Below, piece by piece: positions 35,346 through 58,139 of a stretch of DNA of 64,000 bases. Made by a program: the position numbers and the translations under genes. Positions within the stretch are counted from its first letter, which is position 1; each line of letters opens with the position of its first letter. A model generated the notes under the pieces. The model had not been told where the DNA came from and searched no databases. It saw only the letters and a list, made by a program, of their open reading frames with translations. Origin of the DNA: SAR324 cluster bacterium (GTDB taxonomy: Bacteria; SAR324; NAC60-12); the NCBI GenBank assembly GCA_028281495.1, contig JANQJU010000070.1, positions 1 to 64,000 on the forward strand. Reading direction: 5' to 3'.

Positions 35346-35450
35346 CCCGTTTGATGACAGGACGTGAACCCGTTTGATAGTAGGGCGTGAACCCGTTTGA
35401 TAGTAGGGCGTGAACCTGTTTACGGATAGGGTGTGAACCCGTGTGACGGC
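35346..35450 (+). repeat. 23-bp tandem repeat, four copies plus a partial fifth
   Basis: Units start at 35346, 35369, 35392 and 35415, with a partial copy from 35438. The core is CCCGTTTGATAGTAGGGCG followed by TGAA. Units two and three are identical; the first and fourth have diverged. The array sits between the GT-C-like gene and the CpoB-like lipoprotein gene. Confidence 0.9.
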
Positions 35451-39233: not shown

Positions 39234-39297
39234 AACAACACGAGTGATCCTTTGTTACAAAGTGTAACAACACGAGTGATACTTTGTTACAAAATGT
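39234..39297 (+). repeat. Two 32-bp direct repeats each holding an inverted repeat
   Basis: Units at 39234-39265 and 39266-39297 differ at only two positions. Each contains a dyad: TTGTTACA-AAG-TGTAACAA in the first and TGTTACA-AAA-TGTAACA in the second. The second ends 32 bases before the ATG of the TlpA-like gene, where an operator overlapping the promoter would be expected. Confidence 0.85.
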
Positions 39298-39329
39298 AAC
39301 AGCGTCTCTTTTCGTTAGAGTGAGCTAAT

Positions 39330-50772: not shown

Positions 50773-50822
50773 ATTACCTCCTCTTCACAGGTTGCATCAT
50801 TTGAAACATTGAAATAGTTCAT
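50769..50822 (-). other. Possible 17-codon upstream reading frame coupled to pullulanase
   Basis: GAGGTAA precedes an ATG at 50822; the 17-codon frame (MNYFNVSNDATCEEEVI) ends in a TGA that overlaps the pullulanase ATG (ATATGA). Its length and its GGTAAATGA start match the frame upstream of the GH57-like gene. Translation is unproven. Confidence 0.35.
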
Positions 50823-50843
50823 TTACCTCGTTAATCCAGAGCT

Positions 50844-50903
50844 GCAATCGTTTGCAGAATGAATGTCAATTCTGCCTCAAATTGCTACTGCAATCGTTTG
50901 CAA
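50844..50903. promoter_or_regulatory. Two TGCAATCGTTTGCA sites upstream of pullulanase
   Basis: Identical 14-bp near-palindromes at 50844-50857 and 50890-50903, 46 bp apart, differ from the perfect palindrome at 47397 by one base. They are LacI-type operator candidates; a pair spaced like this could support looping or cooperative binding. Confidence 0.65.
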
Positions 50904-51102
50904 TCGGTGAAGAAATAATTCCGAATTCATGCGCATTGCGCAATGAGAATGTTTCCAAACGTTGTGTGCAAGTTGTGAATAGAGAATCGAATTGTCACAG
51001 AAATGTATAAAATTCAATAGGTTGAATGACAAGAATTCAACCTTCTTGCAAGGTCAACCGTGAACAGGGAAGTTGGGAAGTGCGGATTTCGCCAAAATGC
51101 GT

Positions 51103-51152
51103 CGTTTGCAGTGTAAAATGAAACGTTTGCAGCAAAAAATGAAACATTTGCA
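51103..51152. repeat. Three CRTTTGCA direct repeats with 21-bp period
   Basis: CGTTTGCA at 51103, CGTTTGCA at 51124 and CATTTGCA at 51145; the last two sit in longer copies (AAATGAAACRTTTGCA). A 21-bp period (two helical turns) is the geometry of LytTR-domain sites, and AACGTTTGC in the middle copy fits the published LytTR consensus except at its last base. They lie just after the LytTR regulator gene, in the pullulanase upstream region. Confidence 0.7.
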
Positions 51153-51164
51153 AACGCTTTGTGT

Positions 51165-53249: not shown

Positions 53250-54113
53250 CTACGGTCTGGGCAAATAACTATTGAACTCTTGATCATACGCATCAAACCC
53301 CACCACCTCTCGCAGGGTTTCAAAGGCTAGTAAATTTTGTGGAGATTCTCCTTGTTTGAGGGAGCGCAAGGCGTGTTGCATGGACCAAATGGCTGTGCTC
53401 AACAGAGTCAGCGGATAGGCCGCAAGTTTGTAACCGATGGCTTCCAGGCGTTGAGGCGGTAATATCGGAGTGGTTCCTTGTTCAAGCATATTGGCGAGCT
53501 TGTATCCAGGAACTTCGGTGCAGAACCGTTCCATCTCCGCCTCGGACTGAGGGGCTTCGAGAAACACAAAATCCACGCCTTTGTCGACGAAGGCGTTGCA
53601 TCGCCACAAGGCTTCTTCCATACCATCCGTGGCACGAGCATCCGTTCGGGCCATGATCAAGATGTCGGCTCCTTCGTCTCTTGCGTCGACAGCGGCCTGA
53701 ATGCGAGTAAGGGCTTCGGCACGATCCACCACCTGTTTGCCTTGGGTATGACCGCATCGTTTGGGAGCCACTTGGTCTTCAATCATGATGCAGGCCAATC
53801 CGGCTTGAGCATAACCCGCGACAGTCCGTTTCACGTTCATGGCGTTGCCATAGCCGGTATCGCCATCGCCCATCACCGGGATGGAAACCGCTTGGCAAAC
53901 CTGCCGAGCTTGATCCACCATTTCTCCGTAGGAAATCAAACCCGTGTCCGGCAGTCCCAACCGAGCAGCGGATACCGCAAAGCCGCTCATGAAGGTCAAA
54001 GAAAATCCAGCTTGCTCGATCAATTTGGCGGAGAGCGCGTCAAAACAGCATGGCATCTGAATCAACCCCGGCTGTTGCAAGAGGTCTCTCAATTTTTTTG
54101 CGGACGACTTCAT
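53250..54113 (-). CDS. PEP mutase / isocitrate lyase superfamily enzyme
   Basis: The ATG at 54113 overlaps the stop of the upstream gene (ATGA) and begins the conserved fold (MKSSAKKLRDLLQQPGLIQM), so I prefer it over the longer frame from 54263. 287 residues, a normal length. The superfamily signature KRCGH is at APKRCGHTQGK. The metal/oxyanion region (MGDGDTGYGNAMNVKRTV) and DEGADILIMARTDAR are also present. Members cleave C-C bonds in 2-methylisocitrate, oxaloacetate or phosphonate-like substrates; the exact substrate cannot be read from the sequence. It is co-transcribed with an EI24-type membrane protein gene. Confidence 0.85.
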   Translation of the reverse strand: MKSSAKKLRDLLQQPGLIQMPCCFDALSAKLIEQAGFSLTFMSGFAVSAARLGLPDTGLISYGEMVDQARQVCQAVSIPVMGDGDTGYGNAMNVKRTVAGYAQAGLACIMIEDQVAPKRCGHTQGKQVVDRAEALTRIQAAVDARDEGADILIMARTDARATDGMEEALWRCNAFVDKGVDFVFLEAPQSEAEMERFCTEVPGYKLANMLEQGTTPILPPQRLEAIGYKLAAYPLTLLSTAIWSMQHALRSLKQGESPQNLLAFETLREVVGFDAYDQEFNSYLPRP

Positions 54114-54865
54114 GATCCTGCCCCCTGAGTAGACCGTTGGCGTTCGATGTAATAAGCCACCCCCAATACTTGTGTGAGTAAAACCCACGGCATGGCCAGC
54201 CAACCCAGAATCGGAACGAACGCCAATCCCATTTGCGGCAATCCCACTTGAATGGGTGCCCACCGTACTGATTGTTTCAGCGAGTCAGTGGATTCCTTTT
54301 GTTCCTGGAGAACTGTCCAGTACGGATTGAAAATGCCTCGCCCCATCAGGTAGGCGGCTCCAATAAACGCCAAGATAGGGCCAACAATGGGGATGAAACC
54401 CACCACAATCAATAGTAGGACCCAGAGGACCTCTTTGAATCCAACAATTGCAGACTGCACGGTCAATCCCAACCACATCCCGAAATTGAACGGAACATCT
54501 GGTAAAGGCCGGAAATGACGAATGACTTGGCTCACCAAAAACTCATGCCACGCGCCCATCATCGACACCGAAAAAAGCAAGGTAGCCACCGCCAGTAAAG
54601 CCCCCACCAAAATTTGGGTGATCCATAAAATAACGCTTCCTAGTGTGGCCCAGAACCCGTCTTCTGATCCAAAGAACGAAGCGATCCAAGGTTCCAATAG
54701 GTAATTGTACAGCAGACCATTGAGGACCAACGAAACCACAATGAAGATGACCAAATTGGCCAAAAATGCCCGGATCGCCTGTCCTTTCAAACCGGGGACT
54801 TGTTGGAAGGCTTGGTTGCCGTTGCGGAGGCCAGTTAAGGGTCCGATGCGAAGAGCTGACTTCAT
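54110..54865 (-). CDS. EI24/CysZ-like integral membrane protein
   Basis: The ATG at 54865 is preceded by AAGGAG. 251 residues with about five or six hydrophobic segments (FLANLVIFIVVSLVLNGLLY, ILWITQILVGALLAVATLLF, VLWVLLLIVVGFIPIVGPIL, VPILGWLAMPWVLLTQVLGV). The hydrophobic pattern and the GFIPIVGPIL block resemble EI24-domain proteins, which include the sulfate channel CysZ. Its substrate is unknown, and no cysteine-synthesis genes are nearby. The end overlaps the following enzyme gene by 4 bases. Confidence 0.7.
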   Translation of the reverse strand: MKSALRIGPLTGLRNGNQAFQQVPGLKGQAIRAFLANLVIFIVVSLVLNGLLYNYLLEPWIASFFGSEDGFWATLGSVILWITQILVGALLAVATLLFSVSMMGAWHEFLVSQVIRHFRPLPDVPFNFGMWLGLTVQSAIVGFKEVLWVLLLIVVGFIPIVGPILAFIGAAYLMGRGIFNPYWTVLQEQKESTDSLKQSVRWAPIQVGLPQMGLAFVPILGWLAMPWVLLTQVLGVAYYIERQRSTQGAGS

Positions 54866-55009
54866 ATATACTCCTTGGAAAAATAGTGGGTACGCATGAG
54901 TTGGAGATTTCCTAAAATATACCAATTTTCATGTAAGACTGTAGTCTTCAAAACGACAAAGGGTGCTTGTGCAAATCCTAACATATGGATGATTCTAGAA
55001 CAGTGTCCA

Positions 55010-55066
55010 TGAGTTCAGTGTGTTTTGTTGTTACTGAACTCAAATCTACACTAAAGATTGTAGATT
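55010..55066 (+). promoter_or_regulatory. Two adjacent perfect hairpins upstream of the chemoreceptor gene
   Basis: TGAGTTCAGT (55010-55019) pairs with ACTGAACTCA (55033-55042), 10 bp with a 13-nt loop. AATCTACA (55043-55050) pairs with TGTAGATT (55059-55066), 8 bp with an 8-nt loop. They abut without a spacer. Neither is followed by a U-run, so they are not simple terminators. Confidence 0.6.
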
Positions 55067-55118
55067 CGTTTACTATCTTTCAAGACAAGTTGAATTCGAT
55101 GGAAACCGCACGAGGCTT

Positions 55119-55253
55119 ATCTTTGTGGGAAAGATAACGTCTTATGCAAAAGCATCCAGATAAAATCAGAAAAGACAAATCTTTGTGGGAAAGATGAGTC
55201 TTTTTATGGCGTTCATCCGAATGCCAAAGTTGGAAAATCCTTGTGAGAAAGTT
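55119..55253 (+). repeat. Three ~60-bp degenerate tandem units with a conserved hairpin
   Basis: ATCTTTGTGGGAAAGAT occurs at 55119-55135 and 55179-55195, exactly 60 bp apart; a diverged copy (ATCCTTGTGAGAAAGTT) is at 55237-55253. ATCTTT and AAAGAT form a 6-bp stem with a GTGGG loop. Weaker similarity (TTATG, CATCC) continues between units. The array ends ~40 bp before the chemoreceptor ATG. Confidence 0.8.
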
Positions 55254-55294
55254 ATGTCGATTGTGGTGTCTCACAATTATCAGGAGGAGAGTTT

Positions 55295-56872
55295 ATGAGC
55301 CGATGGACCATTCAAACACAAATTGTGCTCAGCGCAGTGGTTTTTTATGCATTGTTGTCACCGCTAATCTGCGGTGCCGCTTACGTTTTCACATTGAAAT
55401 TGGAATCCAAGATGGTTTCTTGGGAACAATCGACTCAGCAATGGTGGCAACAGGATGTGGCAGGAACGTTAAATAATCAGGTGTCTGATAAGAAACAAAC
55501 GAGCTTGCCTCAACAATTACCTCAAAACATGATTCAAGGATATCAGGAAATTGTCGGAAGTTTGATGCAGGCGCAGCAATGGCTGCTTATGGTATTAGGA
55601 ATTATGATGATTGGAGGGGCAACGATTTTCTTCATGTGTATCCGAAATATCAACACGTTGCTGTTTAAAATCATTCATCGGTTTTCAGAAGGCATCAAAC
55701 ATTTGGAACACAACGCGGAGCGCATTGAAGGCAGTGCTGAAGTTTTGTCCAAACAAGTGTCGGAACAAGCGTCTACCGTCAAGAGCATCTCATTGACTTT
55801 AGAAGATACGGTGGTGATGATCCGGCAAAACACCGAGAGCACGCTGCATGTGAAAGAAAAGGCTGATACCTCGTCTCGCCAAGTGGAACAATTGCGCGAC
55901 GCGATGCAAGACTTAGAGCAGTCCAACAATGAAATCGCAGGCATCACCAAAACGATTGACGACATCGCATTTCAAACAAACATCTTATCCTTGAACGCTG
56001 CGGTTGAAGCCGCGCGGGCCGGGGAGCGGGGCCGTGAATTTGCCGTAATTGCTGATGAAATACGCGGTCTCGCCGTGCGCAGCGCTACAGCGACGCAAGA
56101 TATTTCAGGAAGAGTGGGCAACGCCCGACAGAACCTCGAAATGGGGGCCAACATGGCCTACGAAATGATTGAATCTTTCATGGGAATCAATCAGCACATC
56201 CACGAAATCACCGATTCCTCACAACAGCAATTCAACCGGATCCAGCAGATCAGCCAATCTCTCAACCAGTTGAAAGGCACAATTGACACCTGTGCAACGT
56301 CTTCCCAGCAAAACACGCTTTCCATCTACCAATTGAATGATGAAATAGAGAATTCCCACAACATCGTTGCCGATCTTAAAAAAGTAGTCGGAGAGGACAC
56401 ATTGCGTTCGAACCGCCAGATCAGTGCCTTTGCACAAACCGCTTTCGCGGGTGGATTGACACCCAGTCATGTCTTCCGTAACACCCAATATATCATTCGA
56501 GACTTGGACTCGATTTTCCAACGATTGAACCTATCCACAGCCGTTGCCGAACCGATTCTTCCCAACAAGCAAATCATACCAAAAGATGTCCTACAACAGT
56601 TGTATCGTGTCTTTGAAAAAGTAGGACAAGCCCAGCGAAAGTTCGGAGTGTCCGCCTTTGTTCCTCCTCCGTTCCCCGAAGGGAACATCCTACCGTCTGC
56701 TCCTTATGATGCGACTGGGCTGATTTTGGCAGAATTGATTAAAATCAAACACCATTTGGATCTTACCGACCGACGAGTGCAATTGGATTTGATACCGGGC
56801 AAAGTGCCCAAAGATGTGTTTTTACAAGTCCTGTTGATCACTGCCAAATTGGAACGATTGATTGGCCGTTGA
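55295..56872 (+). CDS. Methyl-accepting chemotaxis protein
   Basis: 525 residues. The ATG follows AGGAGGAG. A first membrane segment (VLSAVVFYALLSPLICGAAYVF), a short periplasmic part of ~60 residues and a second segment (QWLLMVLGIMMIGGATIFF) precede the cytoplasmic signalling domain. Its tip carries the conserved hairpin (IDDIAFQTNILSLNAAVEAARAGERGREFAVIADEIRGLA). No clear HAMP is visible. The C-terminal ~120 residues after the signalling domain are an unusual extension (VFRNTQYIIRDLDSIFQRL...), not the CheR-binding pentapeptide. The upstream region is strongly structured. Confidence 0.92.
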   Translation: MSRWTIQTQIVLSAVVFYALLSPLICGAAYVFTLKLESKMVSWEQSTQQWWQQDVAGTLNNQVSDKKQTSLPQQLPQNMIQGYQEIVGSLMQAQQWLLMVLGIMMIGGATIFFMCIRNINTLLFKIIHRFSEGIKHLEHNAERIEGSAEVLSKQVSEQASTVKSISLTLEDTVVMIRQNTESTLHVKEKADTSSRQVEQLRDAMQDLEQSNNEIAGITKTIDDIAFQTNILSLNAAVEAARAGERGREFAVIADEIRGLAVRSATATQDISGRVGNARQNLEMGANMAYEMIESFMGINQHIHEITDSSQQQFNRIQQISQSLNQLKGTIDTCATSSQQNTLSIYQLNDEIENSHNIVADLKKVVGEDTLRSNRQISAFAQTAFAGGLTPSHVFRNTQYIIRDLDSIFQRLNLSTAVAEPILPNKQIIPKDVLQQLYRVFEKVGQAQRKFGVSAFVPPPFPEGNILPSAPYDATGLILAELIKIKHHLDLTDRRVQLDLIPGKVPKDVFLQVLLITAKLERLIGR

Positions 56873-58024: not shown

Positions 58025-58108
58025 AATGGATTCCGTTTGAGTGAATAGGAGGAATGGATTCCGTTTGAGTGAATAGGAGGAATGGACTCCGTTTGAATGA
58101 ATAGGAGG
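58025..58108 (+). repeat. 28-bp tandem repeat, three copies, upstream of lysR
   Basis: Units at 58025-58052, 58053-58080 and 58081-58108; the first two are identical and the third has two changes. Each contains ATGGATTCCGTTTGA (a four-codon frame plus stop) and AGGAGGA, so the array can be read as SD-like and ATG motifs in series. Confidence 0.92.
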
Positions 58109-58139
58109 AATCGAATGTTTGTGGAACGAAAGGAATGCA

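What the first reader, a model, noticed from the sequence alone, without database searches (positions are those of the whole stretch)
55010..55260. Highly structured leader of a chemoreceptor gene
Two abutting perfect hairpins (10 and 8 bp) are followed by three ~60-bp units each with an ATCTTT-loop-AAAGAT hairpin. Five potential stem-loops in 250 bases before one gene suggests an RNA-level control element or a repeated protein site. I did not recognise a known riboswitch.
Basis: seen in the sequence. Interest (0 to 1): 0.55.

Follow-up and report, generated by a model that had tools for sequence, protein, structure and literature searches.

The report
Hairpin-rich leader before chemoreceptor gene
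The stretch before a chemoreceptor gene really is packed with hairpins and carries three spaced copies of one hairpin, but no relative shares it and short local repeats are common in this genome, so a regulatory role is plausible and unproven.

Summary
Window 55010-55294 holds abutting perfect hairpins (10 and 8 bp), then cores at 55119, 55179 and 55237, spaced 60 and 58 bp. The first two cores are identical (ATCTTTGTGGGAAAGAT); the third has 2 of 6 pairs broken. This is far beyond chance: it is the most strongly folded of 510 window segments tested, and no shuffle reached its 17-bp repeat. No Rfam family matches. The core hairpin is unique in the 9.7-Mb genome, absent from 20 other chemoreceptor leaders, and has no convincing homolog in 57 other genomes, so compensatory changes in orthologs cannot be tested. 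Among the three units two pairs change on both sides (59 of 500 shuffles do as well). Both strands fold equally strongly, so RNA and DNA readings are not separated. New context: in 17% of this genome sampled, 30 of 200 intergenic segments carry an exact repeat of 13 bp or more (0 of 45 in a same-family genome). Repeats are ordinary here; the hairpin density stands out and recurs at few places. Best guess: an mRNA leader hiding the ribosome-binding site, tandem hairpins docking a regulator. Confidence is low.

The parts
55010..55042 (+). hairpin 1, perfect 10-bp stem, 13-nt loop
   Evidence: pairing probability 0.74-0.91
55043..55066 (+). hairpin 2, perfect 8-bp stem, 8-nt loop, abutting hairpin 1
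   Evidence: pairing probability 0.77-0.98
55112..55143 (+). unit 1 hairpin: core ATCTTTGTGGGAAAGAT 55119-55135 plus outer stem
   Evidence: pairing probability about 0.5-0.56 in the ensemble
55172..55202 (+). unit 2 hairpin: identical core 55179-55195 plus outer stem
   Evidence: pairing probability 0.95-0.98
55207..55226 (+). hairpin between units 2 and 3, 8 bp with one G-U
55230..55260 (+). unit 3, degenerate copy: core ATCCTTGTGAGAAAGTT 55237-55253, 2 of 6 core pairs broken
55260..55277 (+). hairpin just upstream of the ribosome-binding site; its 3' part can instead pair with unit 3 at 55241-55248
55283..55288 (+). ribosome-binding site GGAGGA, predicted 0.89 paired at 37 C
55295..56872 (+). 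chemoreceptor gene, 525 aa, MCPsignal domain
54113..54868 (-). divergent gene, EI24/CysZ-like membrane protein (start at 54868 chosen by me; the ORF is open upstream to 54925)

Best explanation
The 285 bases before the chemoreceptor gene are transcribed as a structured mRNA leader. Shown by computation: the leader is unusually foldable and its ribosome-binding site is predicted mostly paired. Inferred: translation is low by default, and a trans-acting factor (an RNA-binding protein or a small RNA) that recognises the three GUGRG-loop hairpins shifts the fold and exposes or hides the ribosome-binding site. Unit 3 is the likely pivot, because its sequence can pair with the segment just upstream of the ribosome-binding site. 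The unit probably arose by the local duplication that is common in this genome and was then kept.
For: Fold z -4.95 and the strongest of 510 window segments. The 17-bp core is identical in units 1 and 2 while the flanks are not significantly alike (58 to 862 of 1000 shuffles as good), so the core may have been kept by selection. The outer stems of the three units keep 93% of their pairs with two double-sided changes. The ribosome-binding site is 0.89 paired; 2 of 20 other chemoreceptor leaders reach 0.88 or more, mean 0.67. Unit 3 pairs with 55269-55276 in about two thirds of the ensemble. The hairpin is specific to this gene.
Against: No homolog in any relative. The covariation among units is weak (59 of 500 shuffles equal it) and unit 3's core changes break pairs. 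Both strands fold equally strongly. No + strand promoter-like site, so transcription of the repeats is assumed. Local repeats are common in this genome without evident function.
Confidence: 0.35

Rival explanations
1. Largely neutral: this genome accumulates short local duplications in intergenic DNA, and this leader is one such repeat-prone, palindrome-rich stretch without a dedicated function.
For: 30 of 200 intergenic segments of 200 bp or more in a 1.66-Mb sample hold an exact repeat of 13 bp or more within 200 bp (0 of 600 shuffles, 1 of 600), 17 of 200 one of 17 bp or more; 25 of the 30 are private to their segment in the sample and 14 of 30 are spaced by 10 bp or more, like this one. 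A same-family genome shows 0 of 45. The element is in no relative.
Against: Hairpin density is the third highest among distinct places of the same 1.66 Mb. Only 3 of 30 local repeats contain a stem of 5 bp or more (about 1 expected), and this is one of them. The core stayed identical while the flanks diverged.
Confidence: 0.33
2. DNA-level: the palindromic cores are three operators of a dimeric transcription factor for the chemoreceptor or the divergent CysZ-like gene.
For: 17-bp odd-centred palindromes with half-sites about one helical turn apart (sequence); unit 3 keeps sequence better than pairing; both strands are symmetric; divergent promoter region.
Against: At up to 2 mismatches only 5 other places in 9.7 Mb match: two lie in ORFs (L005, L007), two were seen as sequence only (L004, L006), one lies outside any ORF of 70 aa or more near a contig end (L003). 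Perfect ATCTTT-N5-AAAGAT occurs at 2 other places, both inside ORFs. No regulator gene is adjacent to the region. The outer stems and the other hairpins stay unexplained.
Confidence: 0.2
3. CsrA-controlled leader, possibly through a short upstream ORF whose stop overlaps the start codon, like E. coli iraD.
For: The genome has one CsrA. GGA lies in or next to the loops of units 1 and 2, and the ribosome-binding site holds two more. A 34-codon ORF at 55194 ends at 55298, overlapping the ATG at 55295; the ribosome-binding site is occluded.
Against: Units 1-3 lack A-N-GGA, unit 3 has no GGA in its core, and GGA is not enriched (99 of 500 shuffles reach 6). Leader ORFs have weak ribosome-binding sites (-0.9 to -4.2 against -9.3 kcal/mol). 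ATGA starts are common: 12 of the 20 other chemoreceptor starts chosen read ATGA.
Confidence: 0.1

Closest known systems
E. coli iraD leader (CsrA, translational coupling; PMC5574718, abstract read)
   Same: Occluded ribosome-binding site, several small leader ORFs, the last one's stop overlapping the start codon
   Different: No A-N-GGA in the repeated hairpins, weak leader ORF start sites, no binding data
c-di-GMP/cGAMP (GEMM) riboswitches, which precede signalling and motility genes in other bacteria (recalled; titles and abstract starts seen)
   Same: Structured leader of a chemotaxis-type gene
   Different: No Rfam match at gathering score, and none to a riboswitch among matches up to E 10
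REP/BIME palindromes of enterobacteria (recalled)
   Same: Repeated palindromes between genes
   Different: Those are dispersed genome-wide; this core is private to one leader

Membership tests
Known Rfam RNA family (riboswitch, thermometer, leader) | covariance-model match at or above gathering score | tested here: not met
   0 matches in the whole window; lowest E-value below threshold is VqmR, minus strand, 17.3 bits against 76
CsrA target leader | A-N-GGA in hairpin loops (passages of PMC7652899 seen) | tested here: not met
   only the GGA at 55101 has A two bases before it; units 1 and 2 read GUGGGA, unit 3 GUGAGA
CsrA target leader | CsrA encoded in the genome | tested here: met
   PF02599, 91.6 bits at G000:C98:18889
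CsrA target leader | CsrA binds the RNA | not testable with these tools
   needs gel shift or footprint
RNA thermometer | ribosome-binding site paired when cold, melting in the physiological range | tested here: inconclusive
   predicted pairing 0.96 at 25 C, 0.89 at 37, 0.78 at 45, 0.67 at 55; gradual, and the organism's growth temperature is unknown
Transcription attenuator | terminator hairpin with T-run before the gene | tested here: not met
   the only terminator-like site is at 55322-55338, inside the gene
Dispersed palindromic repeat (REP, MITE) | many copies in the genome | tested here: not met
   own-genome DNA search gives only itself below E 0.39; model R1 gives only the three units below E 1.4
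Transcription-factor operator array | other sites of the same motif before other genes | tested here: not met
   a single-target regulator is not excluded
Conserved structured RNA | compensatory changes in orthologs | tested here: inconclusive
   no orthologs found; among the three units 2 double changes, 59 of 500 shuffles equal

The most novel reading that the evidence does not exclude
In this large-genome bacterium of a SAR324 family, short segments are habitually copied within one intergenic region, and some leaders have turned such copies into private arrays of identical hairpins, each serving as gene-specific RNA (or DNA) docking sites: a way to evolve gene-private regulatory leaders.
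Probability: 0.12. Interest if true: 0.6.

Novelty: new member of a known kind. Interest (0 to 1): 0.3.

Why it matters
If functional, it would be a gene-private control leader of a chemoreceptor with no relative in Rfam, in an uncultured-type lineage. The wider observation, private short repeats in 15% of longer intergenic segments and none in a sampled same-family genome, would let one test how local duplication feeds new regulatory sites.

Tried and rejected
Rejected: known riboswitch or sRNA. REP/MITE family. CRISPR-like array: three copies only, the third degenerate; cas genes were not searched for, this is a judgement from the repeat layout. Coding repeats: the 58-bp step changes the frame. 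Intrinsic attenuator. Homologous tandem arrays elsewhere: the genome contigs pattern scan gave 27 stretches; the flanks of all 27 were printed and none resembles the units; only one (L064) was followed with ORFs and it lies inside an 894-aa ORF that reads as leucine-rich repeats. The viral scan gave 2 stretches, also dissimilar. Model R1 in relatives gave 9 weak matches in other genomes (E 3.7e-4 to 0.078), one per genome; 7 of 9 lie in stop-free frames of 270 codons or more, two (L115, L122) in shorter ones and remain undecided. Two weak DNA matches in relatives, L039 and L040, are 34 and 50 bp. Plasmids and phages: no match. Paper searches on chemoreceptor leaders, CsrA and riboswitches listed nothing on this element; that is not proof that nothing is in print.

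Led nowhere: strand asymmetry of folding; temperature melting; leader ORFs; Rfam on four other own-genome loci.

Full report
What is there. The region of about 425 bp between a divergent EI24/CysZ-like gene (start 54868, minus strand) and a 525-aa chemoreceptor gene (55295-56872, MCPsignal E 8.5e-35) carries hairpins at 55010-55042 (10 bp), 55043-55066 (8 bp), unit 1 (core 55119-55135), unit 2 (core 55179-55195), 55207-55226, unit 3 (core 55237-55253, two core pairs broken) and 55260-55277. Units 1 and 2 share an identical 17-bp core; spacing is 60 and 58 bp.

Beyond chance. The longest exact direct repeat is 17 nt; 2000 dinucleotide shuffles reached at most 12. Counts of perfect stems of at least 6, 7 and 8 bp exceed all of 500 shuffles each (one hairpin can be counted more than once, in shuffles too). 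The 291-nt segment has fold z -4.95 (200 shuffles). In a scan of 255 positions on both strands it was first and second, with the next segment at -3.66 (20 shuffles per segment, so single z values are rough: the minus strand reads -8.1 there, -4.92 with 100 shuffles and -5.62). Both strands fold equally strongly, so this does not say RNA rather than DNA.

Relatives. No Rfam family matches. The chemoreceptor has no close relative in genome contigs or viral contigs by the pattern search. In 58 genomes (own plus 57) the best other-genome match is E 2.5e-38 at 33% identity over residues 96-376. The leader has no real match in those genomes (two matches of 34 and 50 bp), and the tandem pattern occurs only here. 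Of 27 pattern stretches in genome contigs none resembles it. A model of the hairpin (R1) finds only the three units in the own genome below E 1.4. In other genomes it gives nine weak single matches, 7 of them in long open frames; at E up to 0.1 in 57 genomes about 6 are expected by chance. Twenty other chemoreceptor leaders of the genome (20 of the 24 others scored) have z between -2.29 and +1.07, and R1 finds nothing in them up to E 10.

Units compared. With the named structure 90.9% of cells pair, two outer pairs change on both sides and none in the core; 59 of 500 shuffles do as well, and slid versions pair 45-59%. Unit 3's core changes break pairs, which favours recognition of sequence over pure stem. 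Flank similarity between units is not significant (58 to 862 of 1000 shuffles as good).

Translation. The ribosome-binding site GGAGGA is the strongest in the leader (-9.3 kcal/mol against a recalled 16S tail) and is predicted 0.89 paired; 2 of 20 other leaders reach 0.88 or more, mean 0.67. Its partners differ with the length folded, so the occlusion is robust but no single switch is. Unit 3 pairs with 55269-55276, next to the ribosome-binding site, in about two thirds of the ensemble. A 34-codon ORF overlaps the start codon as ATGA, but its start site is weak and ATGA is common, 12 of 20. CsrA exists, but its loop consensus is not met.

Genome context. Sampling 1.66 Mb (80 stretches of about 20 kb plus the window), 30 of 200 intergenic segments of at least 200 bp have an exact repeat of 13 bp or more within 200 bp (1 of 600 shuffles, 0 of 600), 17 have 17 bp or more, and 25 of 30 are private to their segment in that sample. 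Controls, same script: G002 (same family) 0 of 45, G005 2 of 11 (the same 13-mer in both), E. coli MG1655 2 of 40 (which I recognise as REP-type, from memory). Fisher p is 0.002 against G002 and 0.12 against E. coli, so the contrast with E. coli is not significant. By summed perfect stems per 285 nt the focal segment (38 bp, 5 hairpins) ranks third among distinct places in the 1.66 Mb, behind L193:7151 and L133:4426 (40 each), with others at 37. L138:14907-15200, the leader of a solute-binding protein gene, folds with z -5.24, and L140:13727 before a Ham1 gene with -5.29; neither has a match in 38 other genomes, and the loci L133, L138 and L140 have no Rfam match. So structured or repeat-bearing intergenic regions recur here, each with its own sequence.

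Judgement. The sequence feature is real and unusual. RNA-level control is my first guess (0.35), almost level with a neutral origin by local duplication (0.33), then DNA operators (0.2) and CsrA (0.1). The genome bin is 93% complete with 5.25% contamination.

Noticed in passing
window 35346-35446, 39234-39301, 58025-58111: Tandem arrays (23, 32 and 28 bp units) ending 62, 29 and 8 bp upstream of predicted ORF starts; in 400 kb of the genome 14 of 40 arrays were non-coding and 10 lay within 150 bp upstream of an ORF start.
   Followed up: partly
window 50773-51164: Private repeats of TGCAAACG type, including a repeated hairpin CTGCAATCGTTTGCAG at 50842 and 50888 (one mismatch), before the 1100-aa minus-strand ORF.
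   Followed up: partly
L138:14907-15200: Strongly folded leader (z -5.24) before a solute-binding protein gene, no Rfam match, no match in 38 other genomes.
   Followed up: partly
L140:13727-14092: Strongly folded segment (z -5.29) before a Ham1-family gene, no Rfam match, no match in 38 other genomes.
   Followed up: partly
L198:19116-19195: Hairpin CTCGTGTTCTATTGCACGAG repeated 60 bp apart (one mismatch) in non-coding DNA, followed by further TCTCGT repeats.
   Followed up: no
L067, L078, L060, L077, L082: TTGTGGGAAAG-containing repeats recur in Rhodoferax and Oxalobacteraceae genomes with a shared longer consensus; apparently a separate dispersed repeat.
   Followed up: no
window 54936-54949: Further small palindrome AAGACTGTAGTCTT in the same intergenic region.
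   Followed up: no
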